Below, piece by piece: positions 1,374 to 32,652 of a stretch of DNA of 32,652 nt (position 1 is the stretch's first letter; each line of letters begins with the position of its first letter). A program made the translations under genes and the position numbers. The stretch is from Monoraphidium neglectum. Lineage: Eukaryota; Chlorophyta; Chlorophyceae; Sphaeropleales; Selenastraceae. Below the pieces are notes generated by a model. It worked only from the letters and a program-made list of their open reading frames with translations. It was not told where the DNA came from and did not search any database. The stretch covers positions 1 to 32,652 of the forward strand of contig NW_014013359.1 in assembly GCF_000611645.1 (NCBI RefSeq), read 5' to 3'.

Positions 1374-3820
1374 ATGCAGCGGCTCGTCTTGCTGCTGGTA
1401 GTCCTGTGCGCGGCCTCCAGCGCTACTGCCCAGAGCGCCGATGCGCCGCACGGAGCTTACCTGGTGGGTCTGCGTGCACGCTACATGCCTGAGCAGCGGC
1501 CTCCTGTACCCACCCACACGCCCCGGATGAGATCCTCACCTGCGTGCATTGCAATCCCGTCTGCCAATACCAGGGCTGCTTCGACCTGACCCAGCTGGAC
1601 GGACTGCGCAGCTCCGACCCCCCGGCCCAGTTTGTCTCCTACAGCATCAGCAAGTGCGCCGGCTACTGCCGCACCAAGGGTGCCCCCTTCAATGCAATCA
1701 CCCCCAACTTTGAGTGCCGCTGCCTCAACGTGATCCCCGCGGAAGCCGCGCGTGCACCCGATGCCGCTTGCGGTGACAAGGGTGCAGGTGCCGCGCTCTT
1801 CTACAATCATGCTGATGCGGGCGAGGCCACCTGCCGTGTGGCCAACGTGCCCATGGAGAAAAACAGCTTCAACTTCCACTACAACGACAACCACGCCTCC
1901 TTTGATAACGGCGTCATGACGATCAAGATGGTGGGCAGGGCTGCTGGTTGACAGGTGGACGGACCCACGAGTGTGCAGCTGTTATTCGCTGTGTTGATGG
2001 ACACCCGGCGGAACAGACATGCGCAGGCAGGAGGGGAAAACCATTTTTAAAGGCATGAGTGGCAGTCAGCGCGATGGCGCCGCATGTGCCAGCAAAATGC
2101 ATCCAGCCGAGCGCTGGTGCCGAGTGCTCCACCGCCTCAACCTGCCGTCCCCCTCAACAGGAGGGCAGCAACGGCCTGCGCTTTACAACAAACGATGGCA
2201 AGCACATGTTTGGCATGTACCAGGTGGGAAGTTTGGGCTAGAGGCGTGGGTCAGAGAGCCAGATAGCGATAGCCGTACTACGAAGAGAAGCATGCGCACT
2301 GCGCAGGTGCAGGGGATGTTAGCAGGGGCTGTGCCCTCTGAAGCCACCTCGCGCCCACGCTCTGCCAGCTACTGCGATCCCGGCCTGACACACGCCCAGG
2401 TGACCGGCAAGATCGACAAGTCGTCCGGCGCCGTGACCGCCTTCTACACGCGTTCCAGCGACGACTACAACACCGCCAACTGGGGGGACTTCAGCGAGAT
2501 TGATTACGAGGTGAGGGGCAGCATGTGCGCGTGTGCATGGGTGTGTGTGAGTGAGAGAGAGCGAGCATGTGTCTATGTGCGCGCCCAAGTGCAGGCACAG
2601 TTGTGCGCGTTTGCACGCATATGGAGTCATACATGGGGAAGCCGTGAAGGCCAAGTGATGATATGGTGCAAGCCGTTATTAGTATTTGGTGTTGGCAAAC
2701 TGCTTAAGCTTCCCTCATCTCTGAGAATCCACCATTCGCTTTGGGATCCCATACCTGGCACTCGGGAGTGCCATGGAAGGCCCAGGATGGCAAGCAACAG
2801 CACTCGAATTGACCCGGGCGGGCGCCGCTCACCCCTGCTCTTCTTTCCCCACCACCCCACCCGCCCAGTTCCTCAACGGCAACCCCAGTGTGCCGTCTGG
2901 CCTGTGGCTGAACAGCTTCAACAAGGGCATGAGCGGGGGCGAGCGCCTGGTCAAGCCGGAGGAGTACCGCACTCTGCTGGGCCTCAAGGAGGGGGAGGAC
3001 GCCAGCAACACGTTTGTCACCTTCGCCTTCAACTGGCAGCCCGACCAGGTGGGTCCCGCAGCCGGGGGCATTAGGGGTCAAGACGTGGGACGGAGCATTG
3101 GCAATCCCAAGCCACTGTCTGGCACTGATGCGTGCTTCCTTGCCAGCAGCACCTCGCAGCGTCCTGCTCCCCTCCTTGGCAACCCACGATCCCCCCCGGT
3201 GGCCGGAACCTCTCGCGATGACCTACAGGTGGCGTGGTACGCCAATGGCGTGATGCTGCTGCGGCGGCGCTACGACGAGGAGGTCAGCTGGAAGGACATG
3301 AAGGGGGTGGGCTTCACGCGCTCGTTCAGGCCGCCCAACGCGCCGCAGCACGTGACCTTCAGCATGTGGGCCGACCAGGACCAGGAGCGCGCCTTTGGGG
3401 GCAAGCTGGCCTGGGACAAGTCGCCCTTCACGTCGCAATTCAAGGATCTCAGGTACGTCCAGGGAAGCCAGTGGTGTCAAGGGGGCGGGGGCTGCGGCAA
3501 CTTGGGGGCCTTCGCCTCCTGAGCTCTCCACGCTCAGCAGACGTCACCCATCTTCCTTGAACTGACCCAATTGCACCACCCACGCCCTCTTTTCATTTGC
3601 CAGGCGCGTGCTGTGCGAGGCCAAGGCGGCACCTAGCAATGGCCCAGCCTGGCTGTACCAGCCCCAGGCCCCCACCCCCGCAACTCCCACCACCGAGGCT
3701 GGACCCGTCGCCCCTGCCGCCTCACCAGCCACCGCGGCTGCTGCTGCGTCCCCGGCGGCAAAGGCGTCGCCTGCAATTCAGGCGGTGCAGCAGGCCCAGA
3801 AGCCCAAGAAGGGCCTGTGA
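1374..3820 (+). CDS. Secreted WSC-domain GH16 glucan hydrolase/transglycosylase
   Basis: Seven exons join in frame to 413 residues: 1374-1463, 1574-1930, 2161-2223, 2400-2510, 2869-3048, 3229-3452, 3604-3820. Residues 1-20 form a signal peptide with a leucine/valine core and an ATAQ end. Residues 30-118 are a WSC carbohydrate-binding domain (YLGCFDL, CAGYCRTKG, ECRCLN, about eight cysteines). Residues 129-342 are a glycoside hydrolase family 16 fold. The active-site motif EIDYE sits at 203-207 (nucleophile E203, D205, acid/base E207) and runs across an intron into FLNGN, as in xyloglucan endotransglycosylases (EIDFEFLGN). GAVTAFYTRSS before it, and GGKLAWDKSPF near the end, also match XTH/CRH-type enzymes. 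The C-terminus is a Pro/Ala-rich tail ending KPKKGL. Likely a cell-wall or extracellular beta-glucan remodeller. The substrate cannot be read from the sequence. All splice junctions are GT-AG. Confidence 0.82.
2521..2600. repeat. TG-rich tract in a WSC-GH16 intron
   Basis: Degenerate TG/GA-rich sequence beginning just after the donor at 2511, inside the 358-base intron that splits the catalytic motif EIDYE from FLNGN. Confidence 0.6.
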
Positions 3821-8260: not shown

Positions 8261-11168
8261 CACTTGTGAGCGTGAGTGTGTGCGTGCGTGTTTGCGCGCA
8301 CGCACGTGTGTGAGGTGATGGTGGTTGACCACATTTAGGTTGACTGATATTCACAAGCCACAACCCCAAGGCCTTGTCTGTTGACGTAAGTTGATGGGCA
8401 ACCACCCGCAACGGCACTGACCCGCCCTCAGCCCCCCTCCCTACCAGATGAGGGCCATGTCAGTCGGCAGCATCATGAGCTCGCCGCTCTTGTCCTCGTA
8501 CTGCACGGGGCCGCTCCACCGCTTCTTGCGCCTGGGGATAACATGACAGGTGGGAGGTGGAGAGGGCAATGTACCATGAAAATGCGTCACAGAAGAGGGT
8601 GCGGCTGCGACACCACCGGGCAAGACTCACCAAACAGCTGCAGACAGCAGCTCAGGCACGAGCAACTGCACACAGGGCAGCAAGAGCAAACCAGCCATCG
8701 GAGTGTATCTGTGCAAATGTGTGCACTTGCATGTGTATGTGTTTGTGCGTGCGCGAGTATGTCAATGTGTGTGGTTCGGCGTATGTGCACACGTGAGTGC
8801 GTGCTTGTGTATTTGCTATGGCACCCACCACTTGTTGTTGACCAGCTCCTGGAAGTACAGGTTGCTGCCAAAGGTGAATGGGTGGGTGGAGCGCATGTGG
8901 GGGGTGAGGCCCTTGGGATGGCAAAATGGGACCAGCGTGTGGGCTCGGTGAACGTAGAGGAAGGTCGTGCGCAGGGGCTGGTGCGGACATGCCAGACTCG
9001 AAGGCAAGCCCAAGACCTCTGGCTGGCATCAAGGGTGTTGCAACCATCCGCACAGCAGCTCTCAGCAGTTGTTGCAATGCACAGCGTCCATGCAGCCTCA
9101 CCTGAAGGTGGTGGGCGCGTTGGTCCAGGGGCCTGCGGTGGCAGATACAGGACGGACGCTCTTTCTTGAGAATGAATGAGTGACTCCCGTGTCAATGCAA
9201 GCACGCAAGACAGGCAAGATCAGGTGAGTAAGCAGGAGCCCTGCAATCCACCAGGCATGTCAGCCTGGGCAGCACACCCACCCAGGAAGCCACTCCTGTC
9301 GGCATGGCAGCGGCCCAGCGTGTGTGCGCCGCTCAGCGCCACGATCTCCCTGCACAGGAGTGGGGTTGTTTAAAGGGGGGAAGATTGAGAGGGTGTTAAT
9401 GTCTTGCTGCAGCACTGCATCGGCGTTGGTATTGGCGGGGCTGACCTGCCGTCTTAACAGCCTGTATCACCCCTTTGTAGCCATCGGCCTCCTCGGCCAA
9501 GTGGCCGCGCGCGCTCCCCCCCTCCCACCTGTCGTTGAAGCCCATGCGCCCAAAAATCTCGCGGATGTGGGCAGCGCCCAGACTCGCGTCGGGCAGGCGG
9601 CCGTCAGGAGGGCACGCGGTGCTGTCGGGTGCGTCGCTGCGTCCGGGAGCCCACGGGATGGTGGGGCCTTGGGTGGCAAAAAGGGGGTGGTGTGCAGCGA
9701 AGGAGTTCTGTGGGCCTGACTCAAGCAGGGGAGATTTTCAAAACAACCAGTAGCTTGTTGCTCTAACCTATTGCTGTTGCTGGAAAACAAATATTGCTTT
9801 GACCCCGGCCAGCACAGCAGATACGGCCACAAGACTCCCCTTTCCCCTCCCCATCGCCGAGCGCACCGCCCATGGCCTCAATGGCGGTTACCCCAGCCAG
9901 GGTGTAGAGGTCTGCGTACGTGATCCATGGGAACTTAGCCTTGATGGGCTCAAGCAGGTTCCTGAGGGGACAGTGCAGGGCGGGTCTGTGTTTGAAGGGG
10001 ACATGGAGCGGATGCATGCAGGCGTGCAAGCACATGCGGGGCCAGCTGTTGCAGCTGCAGCTGCACCTGTGCACCCGCTCGCGTCTCTGGGAGCCATCCA
10101 ATAATGCCCCGCCCTGCGCTGCCGTTCCCTGCCGCCATACCTGGCCACGGCCAGGCCCGCGTTGGCGCCGTGCTCGCTCTCAGGAGCGAAGCGCATGGTG
10201 GCACCGTTGGAGCCGCCGGTGCCGCTGGCCTTGTCGTACGTCCCCGCAGAGTGCCATGCCAGGCGCACCTTCCGGGGAGGAGGGGTGTGGGCGAGGGGAC
10301 GGAGCAGGCGGACACCTTTAATGCATCAACCCGTCAGTACCGCATGAGCGAGCCATGCGGAGGCAAAATAGGCCACAACTGCCCCTGCGCCCCAAAACAT
10401 CTCCATATGTCCCCGTGCGCCATCCCGATCCTGATGGCCCCTTTCCCCTTTGCCCCCGCCTGGTCGGCCCTGCCCTTGTCCTCCCCCGACCCGCCCTTGT
10501 CACCAGCACGGGGCCGTAGGAGCCATCGTCATAGCCATCCACATCCAGCACGTCCTCGATCGCCTTGCGCACCGCACCGTAGTCTGGCTTGGCAGGAGCC
10601 TGGGGGTATCGATAAGAAGAGATGGCGATGCTTGAACCTCGTGTGGCATGCGACGACGAGGTGCGGACTGGGACGCCGAGGCAGCGCGCACCCCTGCCTT
10701 GCGTCGATAAGCCGCCACCGCTTACCGTAATCACGGGGCCAGGGCTGCCGCTCAGGCTGTCCAGCAGGCCAGTCTTCCAGGCGTAAACTCCACCGGCAGC
10801 GGCAGCGCCCACCACCAAGAGCACCTTGCCGCTGCCGCCGCCACTGGCACTGCCCTGGGGGTTGTGCAGTGCATGCCAGATCAGCGTGCTGAGAGGCAGG
10901 CGCCAATCCCGGCGGTTTGGGCGTCTAGTCTGTGCACGCGACGCTCACGCGGTCTCGTGGCGCGTATAGTGGGGATAATGTCACGCCTCATTTGAGCCTC
11001 GCATGCAGCAGGCAGGGCGGGGCCACGCAGGTGGTCCCGCAATGCACTCGGTTGGGTGCAAGTGTCTCCCACCTCAGAAGCGAACGAACGTGCAGCTGTA
11101 GACATAATATGCGAGCGCGTCGCAGGTGCAGCCGCCCGGGCGGCGGCTAAAGCGAGCCTGCCGATCAT
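7945..11168 (-). CDS. Cytochrome c peroxidase-type class I haem peroxidase, mitochondrial, membrane-anchored
   Basis: Twelve minus-strand exons join in frame to 341 residues: 11168-11073, 10854-10726, 10599-10504, 10268-10141, 9961-9867, 9667-9529, 9349-9282, 9132-9102, 8864-8829, 8531-8445, 8186-8126, 8004-7945. All residues of the class I peroxidase site are present: distal R109, W112 and H113 ([14 protein letters not shown]), proximal H237 ([11 protein letters not shown]), W253 (GPWTNAP) and D297 ([11 protein letters not shown]). [10 protein letters not shown] and [15 protein letters not shown] also match yeast CCP and ascorbate peroxidases. Residues 1-32 look like an Arg/Ala-rich mitochondrial presequence. 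Residues 43-58 ([16 protein letters not shown]) form a hydrophobic segment, as in yeast Ccp1, where it is removed by m-AAA and rhomboid proteases; that processing is inference here. The enzyme would reduce H2O2 with cytochrome c in the intermembrane space. An ascorbate donor is not excluded. Confidence 0.88.
8221..8258. repeat. (GT)19 microsatellite
   Basis: Perfect dinucleotide repeat of 38 bases in the peroxidase intron 8187-8444, followed by degenerate GTGC/GCAC sequence to about 8310. Confidence 0.95.
8699..8815. repeat. Degenerate TG/TGCG-rich tract
   Basis: Imperfect TG-rich sequence filling much of the peroxidase intron 8532-8828. It probably derives from an old microsatellite. Confidence 0.6.
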
Positions 11169-13545: not shown

Positions 13546-14807
13546 TGGGGGGGAGGTCCAGGATGCCAAAAACACCTCCCAGTCCTCGCAACACCCCAGC
13601 ACACGATTGGTCTGTGGGGGCACATCTTGTTCCGCGCGGGCAATGCCTCCAGAGGCTGGACCCAACCTGCGGTACCAAGCCCCCGCTCATGCGCTTACCT
13701 GTGGGTCGTGGAATGCGGGGCTGGCGTCCTTGATGGCCACCCTCAGCGCGGCCTCCACATCGGGGTCCAGGCCTGATGGGGTTGCAGGCTGGCGGCGGGC
13801 ATGAACGCGGCATAAGAGGGGTAGGGGGGGAGTGAAGGACAGCGCACACAGGTGGGTGATGGTGTTTTGCCTGAGCTGCTGGGCATGGATCAGCAGGGCA
13901 GGCCGAGGGGTACCAGGCAGGCGGTGTTTCACCGCACCCACGGATCGAGCGCTGCTACAGCAGAGACAGCCAGCAGCCATCTGCATATATTAAAATTGGG
14001 TTTCAGGGCTGCTGAAAATCCACGTACAACTGAGACTCACCCTTGCCGTGTTAAGGTTGCTACCGCTGTCGCTGCTGCTGCTGGGGTTGTTGCCGCCCAA
14101 GCCTAGGCGGTCAGCTGCCAGGAAGGCGATGACCGCACAACCGACCAGCAGGCCGTGGACAAAAGAAAAGCTGCTGAGGCCTGGAACAGTGATGTTGCCT
14201 GAGAAGGGGCGTTGACGATGGCAGAGACGGGGTGGGGGATTCAAGCGCCGGCGACCGCTGACTTGGCTGGGCGCAGTTGCCAATTATCTGCACCACAATG
14301 AACCACACCGCTGCGGCAGAGCCCTGCTGCAAGTTCGCACGCAGGGTGGCAAGCTCCTCAGGCGCTGTACCCACCAAGGCGGCGCCGCCGCTCCTTGAGC
14401 TCATCGTCCAGGGGGGCGTCACCGGGTTCCCCGGCTGCCACCTGCTGCACCTGCACCTGCAGAGCCTGCATGCCCAGGCCCGCCCACCGCTGCGTGCCAA
14501 CAATGATGTCTGACGATGGCTCAGCTGCAACCGCGGCTGCCGCGCTCGCAAGCGGCACTAGCGCAAGCCCCGCGAGAAGGGCACGCCTGCTAGCAGAGTG
14601 GGGCCCGAGCTGGACGGTGCTACTGCAGCTGGGCGCTTCTGTATGCCCCCGCGCACTGGAGGCCGCTCGACATTGGGATACTAGCGAACGATAGAGTCTC
14701 CCAGCTGCGCTTGTATGCTGCCGACGGGCCCTTAGATGATTGCCGCTGCGGGGCACCCGGGCTTGGTGGCCTCGCAAGCGACCTAGGCTGGTGGACAGGG
14801 CTGCCAT
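13077..14807 (-). CDS. TIC40-like plastid membrane protein with C-terminal STI1 domain
   Basis: Six minus-strand exons give 280 residues: 14807-14423, 14364-14281, 14198-14041, 13788-13699, 13464-13366, 13103-13077. Residues 1-72 are a Ser/Arg/Ala-rich plastid transit peptide. SRRALLAGLALVPLASAAAA (73-92) resembles a twin-Arg or membrane segment. A second hydrophobic run, VHGLLVGCAVIAFLAAD, follows near residue 170. The C-terminal part matches the STI1 (Hop/Hip-type) domain of TIC40, the inner-envelope co-chaperone of protein import: AFHDPQVHAAIEE, then AINKYREDPAVMGAFQKLLEI, compared with the AFQNPRVQAAI and KYQNDKEVMDVFNKI patterns of plant TIC40. At 280 residues it is much shorter than plant TIC40 (about 450). 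Two junctions are irregular: a 58-base first intron (or a one-base sequence error), and a GC-AG second intron. The domain call is stronger than the TIC40 orthology call. Confidence 0.6.
13509..13542. repeat. (TG)17 microsatellite
   Basis: Perfect 34-base TG repeat in the TIC40-like intron 13465-13698. Confidence 0.95.
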
Positions 14808-15836
14808 GCCAGAGGAAGATGAGGATCAAGGGGGTGGTGCGACCAACGCTGCTGTAGGTGGCCGAGCTCTACAGATCAGCGGTGTTGAGTGTGAACGATG
14901 TGGCAGCGCGCTCAGCAGAACTTATATATCGGACCTCTGCGTTTGTGATGTATCTACGTCGCATGCTGTAGCGCGTGGCCTTCAATAGCTGTTGGCGGCA
15001 AAACAGGGTGTCGGCTGCGACACCCGAGGATCAGCGCGAGCGGAGCGCCGCGATAACACACCCTCTCTTATGCTGTCACACGGCATTAGTTTGCCGCTCG
15101 TCTATGTTGCACTTTGGCAAGCACAGGACAAACACCCTCTGTGCTTGCAGGGAGTGGCCATCTGCCATGCTGGCGCCCTTGCCCCCATGCCTGCGCACGC
15201 ACCTGACTCCGGACCAACACGCTGTCATCCCACCGCTTCCCCTCAGCTCCCCTCCTTATGCACGGTTGTCAACCGATCTGAGTGCACAGCATCATGCCAG
15301 GTGTTGACCTTGGGAGCAGCATCCTTGGGGTGCAGTGCCTGCCAAGATGAGTAAGCAATCCTTGAAGGTGGGCTAAAAAAGGATCAAGGCAGGGTGTGAA
15401 TGCCAAAGTGCTTATGGGACTGCAGCCAGCAGCCAAATTCCGACACGAGCCTCAACATGGCCCAGTATTCTTACTGGCCCCCGCCAACAATGAGCAGGGA
15501 GTTCATGAGCTGAAAGCATGTTGATGCTGACATCAATGATGCGGGTTCGTATGCTTTTGGCTATCGTTAATTTCGTTTATTTGTGCAGAAATATCTGCAC
15601 CACATGAATGCCCCGCGCGAGCGTATATGTTTTTGCTCGTAGCTTGCACACTAGGAGGCGATGTGGCGCTTCCTTGCACCTTCCCAGTGCATGGGTCGTG
15701 CAGCGACAACGCCCAATACTGGCGGGCGTCTGACGTGCGCTGGTGGCTGCACGGGCACCACCTCGCTGCGCCTGAATTTTAATAGCACACCCTTCTCCAG
15801 CCTCATCAGCTGCTGCAGGACTATGCTGCTCTGTTG
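14808..15836. other. Intergenic between TIC40-like and helical-repeat genes
   Basis: Contains the TIC40-like promoter on the left and the 3' UTR of the helical-repeat gene on the right. The stretch 15350-15650 is AT-richer. No gene was recognised. A 60-codon plus-strand frame starting at 14806 overlaps the TIC40-like start codon and is judged accidental. Confidence 0.45.
14922..14928 (-). promoter_or_regulatory. TATA-box candidate for the TIC40-like gene
   Basis: The minus strand reads GATATATAAG across 14930-14921, a near-consensus TATA element 115-120 bases upstream of the ATG at 14805-14807. The position leaves a 5' UTR of roughly 85-90 bases. It is supported only by sequence and position. 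Confidence 0.4.
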
Positions 15837-17288
15837 TCAGGCCGCTTGTCGCGCACCACTAGCAAGCAGCTCGCGGAACATGGCTCTGTGCGTTGCCCAT
15901 AACAGGCGACCCGCGCCCGACAGCATGGCCATCTTGCCATTGTCTCCCTGAACGGCCGCATCCACCACACGCTCAACCTGCAGTCAACCAGGGCATCGTG
16001 CAGGGCAAGTCAGCAGCAACACGCAGGCGTACAATGGCTGACGCACAGCTCCCAACTGTCTTCTCTGTACTCGCGAAATCCAGGCCACTGCACGATCTGC
16101 CGTTGATCAGCGCCAGCCACAGCAGCCCCCTCTCCCCAACAAGATGCTCTGCTGCTGTACTGCAAACACGGCGGCAACTGTTCACCCTGCCCGCACCTCC
16201 ATGCGGCCCCAGTCCTCTGCCAAGACAGCTTCCAGTGCACGCAGCAGGCGCAGCGCAGCGCTGGTGGGCAGCAGCACGTCCACAAGGGCGATCTGGCCAA
16301 TGTGATGGGCCCGCAGGTGGCAGATGGAAGTTCACGGCTGCTGTGTTGTGTGAGGACTGACGACATTCAAGGCAGTTACGCACCGGCTTTGGTGACCTTA
16401 TACACACGTGCATGGCTTCTAGCCGCGCGAGGCGTCAGCGTGCATACACATGCACGCTTGCGCACACACACTCACGCACACTCACACTCACGTGATGGCG
16501 AACGCGCATACACGTATGCATACACTCGCGTGTTGTTGCACGCACCTACACGCACACACGCACATACACACACATTCTCTATCTCACACACACACACGCG
16601 CACACACACGCACACGCACGCGCATGCACACGCACACGCACACGCACGCGCACACGCACGCACGCACACGCACGCACGCACGCACGCACGNNNNNNNNNN
16701 NNNNNNNNNNNNNNNNNNNNNNNNNNNNNNNNNNNNNNNNNNNNNNNNNNNNNNNNNNNNNNNNNNNNNNNNNNNNNNNNNNNNNNNNNNNNNNNNNNNN
16801 NNNNNNNNNNNNNNNNNNNNNNNNNNNNNNNNNNNNNNNNNNNNNNNNNNNNNNNNNNNNNNNNNNNNNNNNNNNNNNNNNNNNNNNNNNNNNNNNNNNN
16901 NNNNNNNNNNNNNNNNNNNNNNNNNNNNNNNNNNNNNNNNNNNNNNNNNNNNNNNNNNNNNNNNNNNNNNNNNNNNNNNNNNNNNNNNNNNNNNNNNNNN
17001 NNNNNNNNNNNNNNNNNNNNNNNNNNNNNNNNNNNNNNNNNNNNNNNNNNNNNNNNNNNNNNNNNNNNNNNNNNNNNNNNNNNNNNNNNNNNNNNNNNNN
17101 NNNNNNNNNNNNNNNNNNNNNNNNNNNNNNNNNNNNNNNNNNNNNNNNNNNNNNNNNNNNNNNNNNNNNNNNNNNNNNNNNNNNNNNNNNNNNNNNNNNN
17201 NNNNNNNNNNNNNNNNNNNNNNNNNNNNNNNNNNNNNNNNNNNNNNNNNNNNNNNNNNNNNNNNNNNNNNNNNGCGACAACGCACGCA

Positions 17289-17345
<57 letters not shown>

Positions 17346-20300
17346 GCGCGCGCGCACACACACACACACATACACATACACACACACACATGTAGATGTG
17401 CCTGTCAGCAAAGAAAATCTCAAGACGCCTCATAACGTACACATGCTGTGTTCATCCCTCCCAAAAGAACTCACAAGAGTTGGCAGGCCTGACAACGTCC
17501 CAGCAAACTGGGCAATGTCCGCAGCAGAGGCCTGTGCAGTAAGTAGCATGCAAAGCGCATGTTGGAAATGCTGCATCTCATCACAACCTGCAAGTAGGTT
17601 GGGGTCACACAGGGCTCTTGGCAGTTCTCAAGGAGGTGACCTGACAGCAACGCGCACCCGGTCGATTGCCGCGCCAAGTGCCTCTATGCGTGCCGCGCTC
17701 AGGGCGTGCTCCAGCGCCCGACCCAGGTTGGGCAGGCCTCCGCTGGCGAGGGGGCCAGGCTGCGGGGTGTGATTTATGGGGTCAGGTTGAATTGACCAGG
17801 TACGTGGCGAGGAAGCGAGGCAAACACCGCAAATGCGTACGAGAATGATGTACGTGCTGGTAAAATAGCTCGCTTGTGTCAATTCAGCAAGCATGACGCA
17901 CGCGCACACCCTCACCTGTGGCGTCGTGGCTAGGTCTGCGATGGCCAGCAGCTTGCTGCCGCGGCCGTCTCTGCCGATGTTGATGGTGTCGACGGCGTCC
18001 AACCAGAGCTCCAGCTGCACAAGCATGCCGTAGAAATGCCGCATTGTTGAAGCGCACATATTCGGCAAATAGCCGGCCTCAATTTGCAACAACGTTGATG
18101 CATGGGACTACGCACGGCCCACATGCAGGCGTTGCTCGCATTGCGCTCACACCGCACCTTGCTTGCGTCACCCCACGCCATATCCAGGGCGCTGAACACC
18201 TTTTCGGAGCGCCCTGCGTCTGCCAGGAGGACGCCCGCCAAGTCCAGTGCCGCACCCACAGCGCGAGGTGTCAGCAGACGCTGGGGGCAGGGGTGGCGAG
18301 GGCGGGCAGGGATGGCGGCTTCAGCGCAAGCAGCGGGTGTCTGGCATGCATCTGAATCCTCTATGTCCTGGTCTCCCCTGAGCGTTTTGCTTCACTACCA
18401 CCAATTGGAGCGCAGAATGCTCACTCCCCCCCTCCCAGCTCACGCACGCACCTCAGCCGAGGTAGTGAAGCGCTCCAGGCGCACAGGGTCGTCGGTGACT
18501 CTGTCAATCAGGGCCTTGTAGCCGACGAGGCGCCCATGGGCCAGCACAAGCTCTAGTGCCTACGCGAACATGGTGCGCTCAGGTGTGTGAGGGGCAAGCA
18601 GACGGACAGCTTCCACCAACCTGTGTACCAGCCACCACACACCTGGCGGCAGCCACGCCTGTTCCGCTTGGTGAACATTTAACACCCACCGCAAACGTGC
18701 GCTCCAAACGCTGCGGCGTCAACACGGTGGCCAGCGCCTCCAGCACCTGCGCGTGCAGTCAGCAGGCAGGCGGGCGGCGTTGGTAGGCCCTCAACATTGT
18801 TGGCAATGAGGGGCTGTCCTCCATAAAAAGCATACGTGCGCGCCCTGCGCTGGGAAGAGCGGCAACTGACGCAACCAAGGCGTTTGCTGAGCCGATGAGA
18901 AAGGCCCAGCCCCTGGAGTGCACAAATTGTGCTGTTGCATTTCTCCAGGATGTTGCAGCTTTCCGCGGTTACCTTCTGTGACGTCACTACTCACCATGCG
19001 TGTGCGTTCCAGGCGGGCAGTGTCTGTTGCCTCGTCGACCGCCAGCAGCAGCCCCGTCACCCGCTCACTGTGCGCACCAGGCGAGGCCGGTGCAGGGCAG
19101 TCAGAAATGCAACGTCAAGAGAGGGAGCGAGCTCGTCACGTCCAATACGCCTCGTCCGTTTACTCACTCTGGCAGGGCGTCGTCCAGCCGCTGTGCCACA
19201 CCCAGCCCCCAGTCTCCGCCCAGCAGCCCGCCCAGCGCCACCGCCAAGCGGTCCAGGCGCTCCTGGGGCAGCACTCCGTCCAGCGCGCAAAACAGCTGCC
19301 GGCGTATAGGAATGCCCGCGGAGGCGGGCGGGCCATCAGTACGCGCTGGTGGTGCATGCTGATCGCAGTGCTGACAACTACGTTTCTACTGCACGCAGTA
19401 GCCACCAACGTGAACCACGGTCGAGGGCTGCACCCTCACACGTAACTCGATCACCGCAATCGACAGCGCGCCGCTTGCCTCAGCGCTCGCTGCTGCCCCA
19501 CCCACCGTTTCCAGGCCCTCCTTCCCAGAGAGGGGCAGCAGCTCGCGCATAAACTGAGCCACGCGGCAAAAATGATCATCCGTCTGCGTGGCAGGGGACC
19601 AAGGGGTGGGCCCACCTTGCTTGATCATTGCACTACTTAACAATTTACATTGCCTGAAAGCGTCGCGGCGGTGATGCTTAGCCTGCAATCCACCCTGCTA
19701 CCTCACAACACCATTTGCGGCGCCCAGGGCCCTGGCCCACCTGGACCTCGTCGTAAACGCCCAGATACTTGGAGCGCCGCGCCTTAGTCCAGTATGTTTG
19801 GAACCCTGCGTGGGCAGGGCAGCGGAAGACGGAGGTTTGAATGCCTGGGGACCTGGCGACACCTCGTCGATGTATGTCTTTTCACACTCCACCATCACTT
19901 TGTGACAATGCGGTGCCTTTGGCATCTCACTGTGATTGCAAAGCTGCAAAACATGTCATTGTGCTTTTATGGCTGGAACACACACATTTTGTATGCGAGC
20001 CTGCTGCCGTCCAGTAGGCCCACGCAGTCGCTGACTTGATGCGCAGTGCCCACCCGTGAATGCTCCTGAGACCACGGGATTGCCACCCTCAAGCGTGGCG
20101 TCCAGCACTGCCTTGGGGACGGGTGCGGCCATAGCAGCTTTCATGGCCTATTGGTTGGAAGGAGATGCATGGCCATAGTCTGTGCTTTGGCCTAAAGCAA
20201 TGGTGGCACGGGACAAATAACATCACTACTGATGTGCTTGCAAGAAAGCAAGGTTGATAATGTATTTCAAGCACCCCGATAATATCAAGATTCGTACTTC

Positions 20301-21612
20301 CATCTGTCATGCCGCCTTTGGGGCCCCCTGCACCTCTCTCACGGTTGCCCTGCCCCACCTTGAACACCTTTGCCAGCCGCTCCGGCGTCAGCGCCACATC
20401 CACAGTGCGCTCCAGGGCGGCCACGGCGTCGTCGTCAAACACCCTGGACGTCAGGCTCGTCATCGCTGTGTAGATGACTGGCGCGGACGACACGTCGCGC
20501 AGATAGGGCACAAACCACCTGGCCTGGTGGTGGTGGTCAATGTCCATGTGTGTGTGTGTGTGCGCGCGCGTGTCGTGCGTGCACGTGTGCGCACGCGTGT
20601 TGTGGGTGGTGCGCCGTGCGTGCAATATCGTTGCAGGGGCAGGCCTCTCCAGAAACGCCCCCCCAAAAGCGTGCCCATTTGCGACTTGCTTGCAGGTGTG
20701 GTTCGGTCAAAGGTCCTGGCAACCACTGAAGTCTGGGGCGCCTGGCATGACAGGCAGAAGCTGCCGACTTTGCCTGCAGGCCGCGTCATTGTACAGCAGC
20801 TGTGCCGCATGCGCACCTGCTCTGGTGCAAGGGAGCGGTCGATGGTGTTGATGATGTCTCGCAGATCCGCCAGTGCCGCGGCGTGCGTCCGGTCGTTGAA
20901 CACGGCCACCATGGCGGGGTGCGTGTTGGCCCTGCCAATGCAGAGATATGCAATGATGGCCTTTGAAACAGGGCTGCAGCTGCACCCTGACATGCGTGAA
21001 TACGCATCCCCGGGCCCTTGGCCATGCGCTTTCATGGGTGCACACTGCATGAGGGGCGCTGTGCACCCACCTGTACCATGGGCGGTCCACCCACGGCTGC
21101 GCCACAAAAGACAGCAGGTCCTGGTGGAGGGTGGTGTCCTGCTGGACGGCCGAGCTGCGGTGGCGTACGGTAGGGGGGGAGGGTAGGTGGCAGTACGTAG
21201 TGGTGGGATTTTGCAGGCAGCGTGCAACAGCATGCCCATGCTGACACGTGCAACGTATGTGGCAAGCCCATGCTGACACGTGCACCACTGCCTGCCATTA
21301 CCATACAATGCCGCCTTTCCACTTGTCGCACTCTGCAGCATCTCAACCCTTCGCCGGCCCACACCCACAAGACACCCACAAGAAGTCGTCCCAGCTGCGC
21401 ATGCCTAGGATCATGTCCTGCAGGGGGGTTGCCTGGTAGTAGCCCCCAGAAGCTTGTTTCGTGCCGCCCGGACTGGCAGGCGCCTGGCCGCTTGCGCTCG
21501 CAGCGCGTCGGCAACTGGTGCGTTGCGTCGCGACTCGCGCAGCACGACAAGGGGTGCTTCGTGCCACCGGCGTCACACGCGAGATCAAGCTGACGGGCGC
21601 CAGAAGCTGCAT
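15837..21612 (-). CDS. Organelle-targeted alpha-helical repeat protein, unrecognised family (interrupted by assembly gap)
   Basis: I do not recognise this protein. Fifteen minus-strand exons join in frame to 549 residues: 21612-21380, 21154-21071, 20931-20817, 20523-20359, 20147-20054, 19805-19741, 19583-19440, 19295-19168, 19067-18995, 18746-18690, 18559-18452, 18280-18158, 18014-17916, 17759-17658, 17531-17475. After the 583-base N run, exons 16292-16197 and 15977-15837 add 78 residues and a TGA. Residues 1-57 are a transit peptide rich in Arg, Ser and Ala without acidic residues. The rest is predicted helical. It carries a loose recurring unit resembling A-L-(h)-x-x-L-T-P-x-R-L-x-x-h: for example DVALTPERLAKVF, DGVLPQERLDRLAVAL, ATVLTPQRLERTFAALELVL, DDPVRLERFTTSAERLLTP and SAARIEALGAAIDR. 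No OPR, PPR or TPR consensus is evident. Exons may be missing in the gap. A solenoid scaffold or binding protein is an inference. Confidence 0.65.
16440..16690. repeat. CA/CG-rich alternating repeat, left flank of the assembly gap
   Basis: About 250 bases of imperfect CACA and CACG units running directly into the N run. It lies in an intron of the helical-repeat gene. Its low complexity probably caused the assembly break. Confidence 0.85.
16691..17273. other. Assembly gap (583 N)
   Basis: Run of undetermined bases flanked on both sides by CA/CG repeats. It falls between the exons ending at 17475 and starting at 16292 of the helical-repeat gene, so it may hide repeat sequence only or also one or more exons. 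The N count may not equal the true length. Confidence 0.98.
17274..17392. repeat. (CA)n/(CG)n alternating repeat, right flank of the gap
   Basis: Contains a perfect CA run of about 50 bases (17293-17342), then a CG run and further CA/CATA units. From 17281 onward it alternates pyrimidine and purine for about 110 bases. It lies in the same intron as the gap. Confidence 0.9.
20541..20600. repeat. TG/CG alternating tract
   Basis: TG repeat followed by GCGC and GTGC units in the helical-repeat gene intron 20524-20816. Confidence 0.8.
21234..21284. repeat. Two direct copies of a 19-base sequence
   Basis: The 19-mer GCCCATGCTGACACGTGCA occurs at 21234-21252 and again at 21266-21284, 32 bases apart, inside the first intron of the helical-repeat gene (21155-21379). 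Each copy contains the E-box-like palindrome CACGTG. Either a local duplication or a paired protein-binding site. Confidence 0.7.
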
Positions 21613-23007
21613 ATTCTGAGAGTCTTAAGGACCGCACGAAGGGGTGGTCTTCCGAGTACCTGATTCGGAGGCTTGCCGGAGATCGCAGGCTGTGGGACTA
21701 TGGGCGCGGCAGTCCGAAGACGATGCGTTTTACGTTGATAGAGAGCTGGTAAGCTGTGTTATTGCATGCATGGTGGTTTGACGGGGTGTGATATGATGGA
21801 GGGTGCGCCTTGCTTGTCGCTTCGTTCCGCCATCTTCACCTGTGTGTGTTGACTCATGCATTGAGGCCTCGCCGCACGCGTTAACTTGTAGACACCGCGC
21901 TCATCCACTTGAAGATACAGCAACGGCTGTGCGCCCATGGCCATTGTGAGAGCCACGGATCCTGTGGACGTTGCGGAAGCGCATTGGCAAGCTGCCGCCC
22001 TTGCCAAGAGCTGCCCCACGGGTCAATGTCCTGGATGAGTAAGATATCTTGTGATCTGACCTAGCTGGGTGGCCAGCCGCTGCCTTGATCATGGAAAGGC
22101 AGGCGTGTGCTGCATCAGTACTTAAATCAGCAAGAATTGCCACAGGCATTACGACCTGTAACAAATGGCAGCTCGGTCGCGACTTCGTTTCGTACAAGGC
22201 ACAAAAAAAAGGCACACAGCCACACAGTGATAAAGACGATCGTAAAGGCATTTATTACTGCCTGGAGGTGGAAACAAAACTCGCAAGTTGTTTGCTTATT
22301 ACCCCTCTCGTTCTGACTGCAACAGGCCTTTTCACATAGGGTTCCAGTTATCACAGGGTGCATCTGGGCGGCATTGCAAATTGAAACTCTAAAGGAGCGC
22401 CATCAAGCCAAACGCTCCTGTGCTGCAAGAGGACACCGACAGCGAACGGTACGTGGCGCACAGGGCGCTGGGCGATTAGAGAGGCCAGTAAGGCGAAAGC
22501 AAGTGTCTAGAAGCTGCTCCTTTAGCAGAACAATGAACCAGCTGAGGCATTATGGTACGAGGGCACTGATGTGATGCGCGCGCATGCACAGGCTGCACTC
22601 CACCTGTTGTAGGTATAAACGCGTGACCGCCAACAGACCGACCCACTAGGGTCAACCTGAGCATCTGGGTGTGTGCTTTTGTATGTGCTGCAGCACCAGC
22701 ATACTTGGTCATCCTGTCAGGGTGCGTGATCGGATGTCCGACTCCTATCTCCACAAGAGGGACGAGTGCCAAGTTCCCGTGCAGCAGCTGAGTTTGAGCT
22801 GTGACAGCGGTGCGGCGGCGAGGCCACCGACACCCCTCCATGCCTCCCTCCATGCTTCCCGACATGCCAAACAACGTCCGGTAAGGTGCATACACCGAAA
22901 TTGTTCATATATCATAACACACTTCAAACTATCACCACATTCATCGACAGCTAAAGTTCAAACACGATCTCCACTCCGCAACAACGACAGCACCACCGCA
23001 GCCAGCC
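21613..23007. other. Divergent promoter region, about 1.4 kb
   Basis: Separates the helical-repeat gene (-) from the condensin H2 gene (+) and must hold both promoters. A TATAT at 22908-22912 lies about 95 bases upstream of the condensin ATG. Some minus-strand frames near 21760-22250 look weakly coding (for example MAMGAQPLLYLQVDERGVYK), but they could not be joined into a gene. Nothing else was recognised. Confidence 0.4.
22907..22912 (+). promoter_or_regulatory. TATA-like element upstream of condensin H2
   Basis: ATATAT within TTCATATATCAT, about 95 bases before the ATG at 23008. It sits in an AT-rich stretch that contrasts with the GC-rich surroundings. Weak evidence only. Confidence 0.3.
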
Positions 23008-26000
23008 ATGGCGACCGTGGGGGGTGAGGACCCCGCGGACGCTGAGCTCAGGGAGAACCGCTTCGCCTATCTGCTGCAGCCTATCCGCGACCTGGCCGCG
23101 AACTGGGACATTGACATCGCCGCGGAGCTCGAGGAGTACCTGGAGGAACTCGAGGGCATTAGCTTTGCGATAGAGGACTGCGGCCCGTCGCTCAACTTCG
23201 CGGAGGCCGCCCTGCTGATCCAGGCGCGTGGCTAGAGGCGCCACAGGCGCGTGGCTAGAGGCGCCACAGGGGTGGAGCGCTCCTGCTGTCAGCGCACGTG
23301 CTGCTGTCGGCATGCCGTCCGCCCCAGCACGGCATGCCGGCGCTGCTGTTTGTGTTAGTGCTTTGAGCCCGCACACATGGGCTGCTGGCTTTGACTGATG
23401 GGGTGACTTGTTGATTGAGCGGCGCCTTGCCCGAAAGTTTGGGGCCCAAACAACGCGGCTCGACAATCACGTGCAAACACATATGGTAGCTGCAGGCTCA
23501 GCCCACCTGCCCAACGCCGTCGCAACGCCCCGGCCGTATCCACAGGGCACTACGTGTGTGTACAGCAAGAAGGTGGAGTACCTGCACAACCTGGTTTTCA
23601 GGGCCCTTGAGACTATTCACAACAAGAAGCAGCGGGAGCGCGGAGGCACAGACGAGGAGGGAGGCGCCAAGCGCGGCACACGCCAGGTGCGGCTGCTGCT
23701 GGCTGGCGAGCCAACGCTCTGTGTGTGTGTGTGCTGGCGGCTCCCACACTCGTTGCCACACCTCAAATTGCATTTAGGCTGGGGTCCCTGCCTGTCTGAT
23801 ACCTAGCCAAGATGCACGCCGCCTGGAGGCAGTGTATTCCTGTCACGTCACCTGCCCAGCCGTCCTAAAGCCAAATCCGACTGCCTGTGCCCCTTGCCAG
23901 GCCACGGCAGATGACCTTGACGAGGCTTTCCTGTCTCTGGACGAGGTGGCCCTGGGCCAGGAGGCGGGGCTGGAGGATATTGACCTGGATGAAGACGACG
24001 AGTTTGGTGGGTGGTTGAGTGCCCCATGAGGAGGTGATGGGGGCGGTGATTTTTAGGGTTTGTCCAGGGTATGATGGGTATCGGGCGTGCAGCGAAAGAT
24101 GGACACTGTGTTGCGGGTTCTCCGCACACCAAAACCATAGAGCCCTGGGGTTGTCTGTAGCAGGTGTTGACTTGAAAACTCATTCCGCACCCCCCTGGTG
24201 CATAACCGCTCCAAACAGGCCCACGAGAGCTGCTGCGCCCGCCTACTGCGCTTTTGGCACTAGAGGACGCCGCTGCAGGGCAGGGCGAGACCGACGCTGG
24301 CAGCTACCGTCTTGCGCAGTGCGTAGTGCACGAGAGCGGCGCCCTGCTGCTGGAGCTGCGGGATGGCGAAGCCTATGACCGCCAGCTGCGCAGCCGGGTG
24401 GGGCAACCCGGGCGGATGGCGGCTGCGGTGGCGGCTGCTGCAGCGGCGGCATGCGGCGCTGCTGCAGGCTTGGAGGGTGGCGCCTTTGGAGGTGGTGGTG
24501 ATGCTTATGATGGTTATGACGACGATGGAGGCGGCGACTGGGGCGGCGGCAGTGACGGCGAAGATGACAGTGGGCCGATTGACATGGACGACGGCCTGGC
24601 AGCACCGCAGCCTGCTGGTGGCGCAGGCGATGACGCGGCGTTGGGTGGGATGGCAGACGGCCCTGGCGACGCGCTGGTGGACGACGATGGCGGGGCAGAT
24701 CCTGGGCAAGCAGTGCTGGCGTCAGCCAGTGGTGGCGCCGCAGAGCAGGCGGCCGGCGTGGCCCTTCGCCAGCGGCGCGGCGCAGGCAACGACAGTGCCG
24801 GGCAAGTCGCAGGTGTGGGCCAGGCGTTTGACCCCTACAAGCCCCTGGACCCCAACGACCAGGGCTCGCTGCTGATCAAGCCACTGCAGGTGAGGTGTGG
24901 GGGTTGCACAGTGGGCACGAGGCACGTCGCTTGCTACCCGGGTCGCATCGCGTTCTTGCATGGCTTACTGGGTGGAAACCTGCCTAGTTGTGCTGTCCAG
25001 CGGTGTGCGCCGCTGTTGCAGGCCACAAAGTGCCTGCAGCTGAACAGCCAGCCCTTCCTCTGACCCTGTACCTGCCCTGGTTGCCGCCTGCCTTCCAAAA
25101 GGTCCGCAAGCCGCGGCACCGCGCGGTGCGCGCCACCAGCGCCGTGACCAGGGAGGGGGTCGCGGCGGGCGCTGTGCCCGGGCAGCTGGCGTTTGCAGAG
25201 GAGTTTGGCTACTTGGCGGACGCGCTGGCCCAGGCAAGGAGGGCGCTCGCGACGGCAGCGGCACGGCAGGGACGCGCGAGGCCCAAGGCCCGCAGGGCTG
25301 GCACAGAGTGTGTGGGCCTGCTGCCACACCTGCAGGGCCGCGCGGTGCTGGACTGGTCTGACGTGGCAGAGGCGGAGCGTGAGGAGGATGCAGCACTTGG
25401 AATGGGCGGCGCCGACAGGGCAGTGGGGGCGCAAGGTGCGCAGCCTTTCTTTTGTGTGACATCCAGGGCTGCCCTGCATGGCTGCCCCTCAACATTCGTG
25501 ATGATGCGTCATGTTGCTCGTGTCTCATGGGTGAATTGTATTCTCATCGGATGCTCGGCGCGGCTGGTGTCTCACGCGCCTGTCCGTAACGCCGTTAACT
25601 CTGCGGCGCAGTCGATGATGATTGGGGTGGCGATGACGGCGGTTGGGGCGACGGTGGGGGTGACTCTGAGGACGGCGAGCCAGGCGCTGGCGGCCAGGAT
25701 CAAGGACCCAGCGCGCTGCAGGCAGCTCTGGAGGAGGCAGCAGGCGGCGGCATGGGTCCAAGCGGCTGGCTGCATGGCGGTGGCAGCGGCGACGTCGCCA
25801 GTGGCAGCCACAAGAGCGACTCTTCTCGCCTGAGTTATGAGGAGCTGTGTCGCGCCCATATCGAGAAGCTCATTGCAGCAGCAGCGGCGCAGCAGGTCCA
25901 GTCAGACCTGCAGGTGGGCTGCCAAGGCCAAGGCGGTGACGTGCTGAGTCTTGACTACACCCATCTGTGCCAAGAAGGTTGAAAAGCGGGCACAGCATGC

Positions 26001-30493: not shown

Positions 30494-32652
30494 ATGCTTG
30501 GGCGGAGTCTTCAGCGCTCCGCGGGGGCCGCGGTGGGTACTAGGAGGAGCGCAGACGTGGTGATCGTGCCACGTAGAGCGTCTCTTACGCGCAGTTTGCT
30601 CCGCAGGCCAAGAGGACCCCCGGAGTAGTAGTGCAGCAGAGCAGCAGGCCTGTGCGGAGCACCCGACAGGTGAGCCACAGCAAGGCCCCGGGGGGGCATG
30701 GCGTCGAGCGCGATTACTTCATAGGCTTACAAAGCACCATTTGACGCAGGTCATCTGCAATGTGGCCACCGGGCCGAAGCCCGGAACTGCGGGCAAGGCC
30801 GTCCAAATCAACATGCTGGACGATGGCTTCGATGGTGAGGCTCCTCTGCACAGATGTTTTGGTGACACACCTCGTTGTCATGCTGCTGCTTGTTGTCCAG
30901 CTGGCAGAGCGTGCATGTGGCGCGCCAGCCTCCTGGCTGGACTCGTGGACTGCTCGACGCACGGGCTGCTCGTGTTGTCAACGCACGGGCTAAGACATGG
31001 CAGCTTAGGGACATGGCATAATGTCTGGCTAGAACAGGTCTGAGGAGAGTGGACTTGGTTGGCAGCGATCACTGTTGAGCATTCCATGCACCATCCTGCG
31101 CGCCGCACGCCACCCAGGCCCCAGCGGCAACAAGGGCCTGTTTACCAGCACCAACCCCGAGCTGCGCCGCGTGGTGCCGGACAATGTGGCTGGCCGTGTG
31201 AAGGTGAAGGTGGTGTACACGGTGCTGGAGGCGCAGTACCAGTCGGCACTGTCCGCAGGTGAACTTGGAGGACGCACAGCGGAAGCTGGGGCGCAGCGAC
31301 ACTGTCTGTGGTTTGGCCATGTGGTGGTGGTGGTTGGGGGCAAACAAGCAGGGGCACGGGTTCGCAAGGTTTGACAAGTCATCACATGTGCGGGCGACAT
31401 TGGACATGGCGGCTTGCAAGCACATGGGTCACAACACAAGCTTGTCCAGCAGCACATACCCTTCCCAACCCCTGACGCCCGCGTGCATCAATGGCTGCTT
31501 GTGCTGTGCAGCTGTCAAGGCTATCAACGCCAGCAACAAGACTGTGTGCTTTGAGATCGTGGGCTACCTGCTGGAGGAGCTGCGCGACCCCGACAACTTT
31601 GCGTCCTTCAAGGAGGACCTGGCCAGCGCCAACGTCTTCATCGGCTCCCTCATCTTCATCGAGGAGCTGGCCGAGAAGGTGGGGGAGAGTGTGTGCGCGC
31701 GTGCGTCTGGGCGGGTGCGTGCGTCCGTGCCGGCAGCTGCGACTGGGGTGGTGCAGGGCGGGTATATCACATGTTGGCATGCTGCTGTGCTCGTATCAAC
31801 GCATTGCGGCCCAGGCCCTGGTGGATGCTGGTTGCAGGTCAAGGACTAGTGTGGCAGTGCGGCAGCGGCCTGTCCACGAGCAGGCATCTGACGTCCTGTG
31901 CATGCGCAGCCCCGCCTCACCTGCCTGACTCAACCACTGTCTCCGCCCCCCAGATCGTGGAGGCCGTGGCCCCCGTGCGCGAGAGGATGGATGCGTGCGT
32001 GATCTTCCCCTCCATGCCCGCCGTGATGAAGCTCAACAAGCTGGGCACCTTCAGCATGGCGCAGCTGGGGCAGAGCAAGAGCATGATCGGGGAGTTCATC
32101 AAGTGAGGAGGCCGGGGGGCTGCAGGGCGCGGCTCATGGCGTTGAGGGCTGATGGAAGGGGAGAGATGCGACGACGTTGCAGCTGCGGGCGTGTGGGGCA
32201 CTGTTGCTGCTGCGGCTGATGCTGCGACCAAGCTGCAACCAGGCTGGTCGCAGAGCTGCAGGCTGTGCTTATCAATGCGCACGTGCGTGTGAGCGGCTGT
32301 GGCGACTCGGGCTGGCGGGCCTCCGAGTCCACAGCTGGCGTCTGCTCTGCTCCCCTTTCACATTGCCCACCACCATTGTCCGCCCTGCCCCCCTCTCGCC
32401 GCTGCCCCTCACCCCTCACCAGGTCTGCGCGCAAGAACAACGACAACTTTGAGGAGGGCCTCCTCAAGCTGGTGCGCACCCTGCCCAAGGTGCTCAAGTA
32501 CCTGCCCAGCGACAAGGCCCAGGACGCGCGCAACTTCGTGCAGTCGCTGCAGTACTGGCTGGGCGGCAACAGCGAGAACCTGCAAAACTTCCTGCTGACC
32601 ATCGCGGGGGAGTACGTGCCGGCGCTGCAGGGCGTGACCTTTGAGGTGGCGG
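30494..32652 (+). CDS. CHLH: Magnesium chelatase subunit H, 5' part (partial)
   Basis: Seven exons are visible, the last running off the window: 30494-30532, 30607-30669, 30750-30834, 31118-31258, 31512-31678, 31954-32102, 32423-32652. They join in frame to 291 residues, against about 1,400 for full ChlH. Residues 1-34 are an Arg/Ser/Gln-rich transit peptide. VICNVATGP follows, then the conserved ChlH N-terminal region: [109 protein letters not shown] and [20 protein letters not shown]. ChlH binds protoporphyrin IX and is the catalytic partner of ChlI and ChlD in inserting Mg2+, the first committed step of chlorophyll synthesis in plastids. Exons 1-2 are the least certain: the 74-base intron between them (30533-30606) was chosen because the unspliced frame hits TAG at 30626. 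The Mg-chelatase core lies beyond the window. Confidence 0.92.

What the first reader, a model, noticed from the sequence alone, without database searches (positions are those of the whole stretch)
15837..21612. Unrecognised organelle-targeted helical-repeat protein spread over at least 17 exons
The assembled protein (at least 627 residues) has a clear transit peptide and then almost entirely helical sequence with a degenerate recurring unit built around A-L-h-x-x-L-T-P-x-R-L. It does not fit the OPR, PPR, TPR, HEAT or ARM consensus as I know them. From exon 9 onward every junction seen is phase 0 apart from the entry to exon 9, and exons of 19-46 codons correspond to one or two helices, suggesting growth by exon or repeat duplication. 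Seen: frames, phases and motif recurrences. Inferred: a solenoid fold and organellar role.
Basis: partly seen in the sequence, partly recalled or inferred. Interest (0 to 1): 0.75.

Follow-up and report, generated by a model that had tools for sequence, protein, structure and literature searches.

The report
Unnamed green-algal protein of repeated helices
This is a real gene of a freshwater green alga, cut into 17 pieces, that encodes an undescribed protein predicted to consist almost wholly of short, similar helices; it looks like an unstudied scaffold protein that may work inside an organelle, which is interesting but not extraordinary.

Summary
The gene is real. It lies on the minus strand of a Monoraphidium neglectum contig, 21612 to 15837, with 17 exons and 605 codons after correction against two relatives at 56-59% identity. 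NCBI holds a truncated 451-aa model, MNEG_2382, 'hypothetical protein'. No Pfam, NCBIfam or solved-structure sequence match reached significance. The recurring motif is a degenerate 16-residue, one-helix unit; the lag-16 signal has z = 4.8, and 1 of 5000 column shuffles reached it. Two AlphaFold2 runs gave only helices, at pLDDT 36 and 38, so a solenoid is inferred, not shown.

Splice sites ignore the predicted helices (12 of 16 inside them, as chance predicts), so exon duplication is not supported. The presequence is credible as coding (about 1% by chance), but both relatives' records start just after it. The body is acidic (pI 5.0-5.3), which I take to favour protein over RNA binding. Best reading: an orphan helical-repeat scaffold, possibly plastid- or mitochondrion-targeted, known so far from two named green algae and one unnamed source. 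Interest is modest, because 3300 further organelle-targeted solenoid candidates are already listed (PMC13126933).

The parts
21380..21612 (-). exon 1 (start codon at 21612, presequence and start of conserved body)
   Evidence: A at -3; in-frame stop just upstream
21427..21612 (-). presequence, residues 1-62: no D/E, 8 K/R, A/S/R/T-rich
   Evidence: absent from the records of both relatives
21071..21154 (-). exon 2
21076..21123 (-). longest invariant run, QDLLSFVAQPWVDRPW (residues 89-104)
   Evidence: identical in the three sequences aligned
20817..20931 (-). exon 3
20359..20523 (-). exon 4 (holds a clear unit, TPERLAKVFK..., that runs on into exon 5)
20054..20147 (-). exon 5
19741..19805 (-). 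exon 6 (joined in phase 1 directly to exon 5)
   Evidence: candidate exon 19897-19853 between them rejected
19506..19583 (-). exon 7
19168..19295 (-). exon 8
18995..19067 (-). exon 9 (entered in phase 2)
18690..18746 (-). exon 10
18452..18559 (-). exon 11
18158..18280 (-). exon 12
17916..18014 (-). exon 13
17982..19526 (-). genomic span of the main run of 16-residue one-helix units (residues about 272-452; introns included)
17988..18005 (-). invariant WLDAVD (residues 445-450), inside the last unit of the main run
17658..17759 (-). exon 14 (donor CGG|gtgcgc chosen to match P0002)
17475..17531 (-). exon 15
16691..17273 (.). assembly gap (583 N) inside intron 15, flanked by (AC)n-like repeats
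   Evidence: no residue missing against the relatives
16197..16292 (-). exon 16
15837..15977 (-). exon 17 with stop codon

Best explanation
A nuclear gene of Monoraphidium neglectum, present once in the held assembly, encodes an acidic, all-helical (predicted) repeat protein of an undescribed family. The helices come in degenerate units of about 16 residues: one helix of some 10-14 residues with a cap that often reads T-P, L-P or D-P. Two consecutive units would make an antiparallel hairpin of about 32-33 residues, and stacking these hairpins would give an alpha-alpha repeat scaffold (inferred). The scaffold presents a strongly conserved N-terminal patch (QDLLSFVAQPWVDRPW...NTHPA) and a second patch around WLDAVD, which most likely bind a partner protein (inferred). 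The protein is probably soluble and probably imported into the plastid or mitochondrion (both inferred).
For: Gene model agrees with two relatives through the whole body. Lag-16 repeat signal above shuffles and a unit consensus. Predicted all-helix in two runs; between helix starts 81 and 378, spacings of 15-19 residues make up 13 of 19 in the P0003 model and 10 of 18 in the P0002 model. The conserved bodies are acidic (pI 5.0-5.3). The longest invariant run lies outside the units: 30 of 47 columns invariant at residues 64-110 against 17 of 50 at 351-400. Acid-free N-terminal extension. All 11 matches of P0003 in the held assembly lie in this gene.
Against: No confident tertiary model (mean pLDDT 36.1 and 38.1; pTM 0.24 and 0.29). 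Over the whole length, helix spacings of 15-19 are a minority (15 of 32 and 14 of 33). The relatives' records lack the presequence. Only three sequences are known to these tools. No expression or interaction data. The unit consensus partly reflects general helix capping, and its register was guided by the low-confidence helices. Solubility is not certain: the highest 19-residue Kyte-Doolittle mean is 1.79 here and 1.73 in P0002, above the customary 1.6 (recalled), though 1.49 in P0003 and at another place in each. A compact helical domain is not excluded.
Confidence: 0.45

Rival explanations
1. It is an organelle RNA-binding alpha-solenoid (an OPR/PPR-like trans-acting factor with strongly drifted repeats) that stabilises or helps translate an organelle transcript.
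For: Presequence, predicted helical repeats, and green algae hold many such factors: PMC13126933 (abstract and sections 14, 22, 29 and 42 read) reports 3300 further solenoid candidates in 43 Archaeplastida proteomes. Lag 35 is the third-highest lag of the profile (z 2.7) and lag 36 the third of P0003 (z 2.7), near the 34-35 residues of TPR and PPR.
Against: The leading period is 16 in every test; no PPPEW or LWALAR string in the protein and no RAP match on this contig (10 matches, none on C262); no PPR or TPR hit; pI near 5 with net charge -10 to -16 for the conserved bodies. That RNA-binding repeat proteins tend to be basic is recalled.
Confidence: 0.2
2. It is a compact, mostly helical protein or enzyme whose conserved stretches (QPWVDRPW, NTHPA, WLDAVD) form an active or ligand site, the 16-residue similarity being short amphipathic helices of like length.
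For: Of the four invariant runs of five or more residues, the two N-terminal ones lie outside the units; tertiary models failed.
Against: Lag-16 similarity survives shuffling of nine-column blocks, which keeps local helix periodicity (0 of 5000 at lag 16 itself; 8 of 5000 reach that z at any lag of 12 or more); no enzyme family matched over its cut-off.
Confidence: 0.25
3. The same helical-repeat protein, but cytosolic: the true start lies at or near the MPLQD position and the upstream 62 codons are an untranslated or spurious extension. (Overlaps with the other readings as to fold.)
For: Both relatives' records start at MPLQD; NCBI's model starts at residue 67 here (P0001).
Against: An open, acid-free 62-codon stretch with at least eight basic residues lies upstream of 689 of 63,396 positions of the window, coding and overlapping positions included; 374 of them hold a Met. 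I could not see the relatives' DNA, so their 5' ends may be caller choices.
Confidence: 0.3

Closest known systems
MNEG_2382, hypothetical protein of Monoraphidium neglectum (P0001)
   Same: The same gene; identical over the shared exons in the alignment.
   Different: NCBI's 451-aa model starts at residue 67, reads through the exon-14 donor and lacks exons 15-17.
Uncharacterized protein A0A7S0RT70 of Chlamydomonas leiostraca (P0002) and a contig protein of unnamed organism (P0003)
   Same: Collinear relatives at 56% and 59% identity; same units and invariant patches.
   Different: Records begin at MPLQD without a presequence; no function known.
OPR/PPR organelle trans-acting factors of green algae (PMC8635915, passages; PMC13126933, sections)
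   Same: Helical repeats; possible organelle targeting.
   Different: Repeats of 35 or 38-40 residues, PPPEW consensus in most OPRs; here a 16-residue one-helix unit, acidic, no family match.
TPR, HEAT, ARM, mTERF helical repeat families
   Same: Short helices in tandem (pairing inferred here).
   Different: None of them listed by Pfam scans at E up to 10 for the 622-aa provisional model or for the 3 records.

Membership tests
TPR, PPR, HEAT, ARM, mTERF and other Pfam helical repeats | match to the family profile | tested here: not met
   622-aa provisional model and all 3 records scanned against 24,736 Pfam models at E up to 10: 2 and 4 families listed, best E 0.089, none a helical-repeat model by name; the cut-offs shown (3 of the 6) are not reached. 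HMMER filters hide most matches above E about 0.1.
OPR | 38-40-residue tandem repeat | tested here: inconclusive
   Autocorrelation peaks at 16; lags 38-40 are not among the listed leading lags. The test is weak: a RAP-bearing locus of the same genome (L007), whose frame is OPR-like to my eye, shows no lag-38 peak among its five leading lags either.
OPR | PPPEW-type consensus | tested here: not met
   No PPPEW or LWALAR string, and no PP at all, in the 605 residues; consensus from PMC8635915 (passages).
OPR-RAP proteins | RAP domain | tested here: not met
   10 RAP matches in the genome, none on contig C262.
alpha-solenoid proteins (structural class) | stacked antiparallel helix pairs | tested here: inconclusive
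   All helices but mean pLDDT 36 and 38.
alpha-solenoid proteins (structural class) | recurring sequence unit | tested here: met
   Lag 16, z 4.8, 1 of 5000 shuffles; weaker in single proteins.
organelle-targeted proteins | N-terminal presequence | tested here: inconclusive
   Acid-free 62-residue N-terminus, about 1% by chance, but absent from both relatives' records. No localisation predictor was available.
relatives of proteins with solved structures | sequence match to a PDB chain | tested here: not met
   Best E 0.56 for the single sequence, 1.6 for the profile. The unit profile's best row, E 0.011, is a repetitive chain named HeliScrew4 with no stretch passing on its own.

The most novel reading that the evidence does not exclude
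A repeat class of its own, perhaps restricted to Chlorophyceae: a 16-residue one-helix unit with a frequent Arg at position 4 (29 of 51 units) and Asp/Glu at position 13 (32 of 51) that could form a salt-bridge ladder between neighbouring helices, building an organelle scaffold unrelated by descent to TPR, PPR, OPR or HEAT.
Probability: 0.2. Interest if true: 0.5.

Novelty: new variant of a known kind. Interest (0 to 1): 0.3.

Why it matters
If the scaffold reading holds, it adds an undescribed helical-repeat family to chlorophyte cell biology, with a repeat unit shorter than the known organelle families. It also corrects a truncated database model that would hide the last three exons and the N-terminus from any proteome-wide scan. 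It does not by itself open a long-standing question.

Tried and rejected
Rejected: a 45-nt candidate exon (19897-19853), because neither relative nor NCBI's model has it. Rejected: a hidden exon in the N gap, because exons 15 and 16 join without loss. Not supported: exon duplication as the source of the repeats. Not found: any relative in prokaryotes or viruses within reach of these searches. Scans with two peptide patterns each gave 15 and 42 stretches, none confirmed, and tblastn found nothing in phage or plasmid records.

Led nowhere: an OPR comparison built from RAP loci of the same genome, since most of those stretches were not in a readable OPR frame; first Pfam scan of five raw frames (0 families); a paper search for the locus tag (0 papers); paper searches on 16-residue helical repeats (2 papers), Chlorophyceae-specific proteins (2 papers) and Monoraphidium solenoids (0 papers), none relevant by their listings; passages of the genome paper PMC3890519, which gave no per-gene exon counts. 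A structure search was not run, because both models are below the confidence at which matches mean anything.

Caution on negatives: the third protein search (2 proteins among 344 candidates) failed to return P0002, although it shares an identical run of at least 16 residues with the query, so 'only three relatives' (3 of 7,990 and 3 of 7,998 scored candidates) is a lower bound. The held assembly has 34.6 Mb in 1632 contigs and may be incomplete, so a second copy is not excluded.

Full report
What was checked. The window is contig C262 of the held genome. A protein search returned NCBI's 'hypothetical protein MNEG_2382 [Monoraphidium neglectum]' on a contig of the same length, 32,652 bases, so the organism is the green alga M. 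neglectum (Chlorophyceae, Sphaeropleales). The feature lies on the minus strand. I read the three frames, chained GT-AG exons and then tested the chain against the search hits. One search returned 3 proteins among 7,990 scored candidates: the NCBI model itself (P0001, 451 aa), a Chlamydomonas leiostraca protein (P0002, 540 aa; same class, order Chlamydomonadales) and a contig protein of unnamed organism (P0003, 535 aa). A profile search gave the same three among 7,998.

Gene model. P0002 and P0003 align with residues 62 to the end. They lack a 45-nt candidate exon of my first model, and P0002 argues for an exon-14 donor six bases earlier. The corrected model has 17 exons, 605 codons and a stop, with 16 introns in phases 2,2,0,0,1,0,0,2 and then eight times 0. 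Identity to M. neglectum is 56% over 540 columns (P0002) and 59% over 532 (P0003); gaps in the body are few and all in the C-terminal fifth. The N gap (16691-17273) sits in intron 15 and hides no coding sequence. NCBI's model is truncated at both ends. P0003 searched against the held assembly (34.6 Mb, possibly incomplete) gave 11 matches, all in this gene, so no second copy was found.

The repeat. On the three-species profile the strongest similarity of the protein to itself is at lag 16 (z 4.8; 1 of 5000 column shuffles reaches it at any lag), followed by lags 51, 35, 17 and 32 at z 2.2-2.8. Lag 16 survives shuffling of nine-column blocks, which keeps local helical periodicity (z 4.4; 0 of 5000 at lag 16 itself, 8 of 5000 at any lag of 12 or more). 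For single proteins the test is weaker: 0, 26 and 54 of 1000 shuffles for P0001, P0003 and P0002; 1 of 500 for the 605-residue model and 0 of 500 without its presequence. Seventeen windows chosen by eye with the predicted helices, in three sequences (51 units, two of the windows overlapping), give roughly [T/D/P]-P-x-R-L-x-R-[L/V]-[L/A/F]-x-A-L-D-x-[A/L]-L, degenerate at most places: Arg at position 4 in 29 of 51, Asp or Glu at position 13 in 32, Leu at position 16 in 22, Pro at position 2 in 13. These counts describe the unit and are not a test, since the register was chosen.

Structure. Two AlphaFold2 runs on three-sequence alignments gave only helices, with mean pLDDT 36.1 and 38.1. Between helix starts 81 and 378, spacings of 15-19 residues make up 13 of 19 (P0003) and 10 of 18 (P0002); over the whole proteins they are 15 of 32 and 14 of 33. 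So 16-residue units suit the middle of the protein, not its ends. The tertiary arrangement is unknown and 'solenoid' remains an inference. No fold search was run on such models.

Exons and helices. If exons had been duplicated with helices, junctions should fall between helices. They fall inside helices of the (low-confidence) P0003 model in 12 of 16 cases, where 76% of residues are helical, and at scattered offsets from helix starts. Phase 0 in 12 of 16 is only mildly unusual against the 5:3:2 ratio given in PMC2834692 (passages read; P = 0.038 at p = 0.5). The last eight in a row have P = 0.004, but that stretch was picked after the fact. Exon duplication is not supported; it is not excluded for an ancient, drifted origin.

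Targeting. Residues 1-62 hold no acidic and eight basic residues. Of 63,396 overlapping positions of the window on both strands, coding ones included, 689 have an open, acid-free stretch of 62 codons with at least eight basic residues upstream, and 374 of those hold a Met. Of 277 ATG-initiated open stretches of 62 codons, 36 are acid-free and 11 also have eight basic residues. The extension is thus probably coding and presequence-like. Against this, both relatives' records begin at MPLQD, exactly where it ends. I could not see their DNA, so this may be a gene caller's choice. No localisation predictor was at hand.

Function. The conserved bodies are acidic (pI 5.0-5.3, net charge -10 to -16; 5.8 and -6 for the full 605 residues). 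The highest 19-residue hydropathy means are 1.79 (M. neglectum), 1.73 (P0002) and 1.49 (P0003), at different places; two exceed the customary 1.6 (recalled), so 'soluble' is likely, not certain. Conservation is strongest at residues 64-110 (30 of 47 columns invariant, including QDLLSFVAQPWVDRPW), high again at 206-255 (28 of 50) and 441-480 (20 of 40, including WLDAVD, which lies in the last unit of the main run), and lowest at 351-440 within the units (29 of 90). That pattern suits a scaffold with binding patches. I put protein scaffolding first, a compact ligand-binding or catalytic helical protein second, and RNA binding third.

What is known. No Pfam or NCBIfam family was matched convincingly and no significant PDB chain was found. 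PMC13126933 (abstract and sections 14, 22, 29 and 42 read) reports 1067 OPR and 4983 PPR proteins and 3300 other solenoid candidates in 43 Archaeplastida proteomes; the words Monoraphidium and neglectum do not occur in its main text, and its supplements were not open to me. An orphan organelle-targeted helical-repeat protein is therefore a known kind of thing. A 16-residue unit is unusual beside the 34-40 residues of TPR, PPR and OPR (PMC8635915, passages), but my search for such units in print was narrow (2 papers, neither relevant by its listing). A locus-tag search found no paper.

Verdict. Interest 0.3.

Noticed in passing
1493-1951 (+): WSC domain (E 6.7e-8); to my eye the following exons resemble a GH16-type glucanase, but the one frame scanned there (2725-3522) had no Pfam match.
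   Followed up: partly
9888-10325 (-): Haem peroxidase exon (Pfam peroxidase, E 2.7e-5, just under the cut-off); looks ascorbate or cytochrome-c peroxidase-like by recall.
   Followed up: partly
22951-23235 (+): N-terminus of condensin II subunit CAP-H2 (CNDH2_N, E 1.5e-21).
   Followed up: partly
31208-32651 (+): Two frames match DUF3479 (E 7.3e-11 and 3.4e-10); by recall this is the N-terminal part of magnesium chelatase subunit H.
   Followed up: partly
14358-14825 (-): A frame with a twin-arginine-like RRALLAGLALVPLASAAAA stretch, possibly a thylakoid lumen protein; no Pfam match.
   Followed up: partly
16440-17400: Long (AC)n-like tracts on both sides of a 583-base N gap (16691-17273) inside intron 15.
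   Followed up: no
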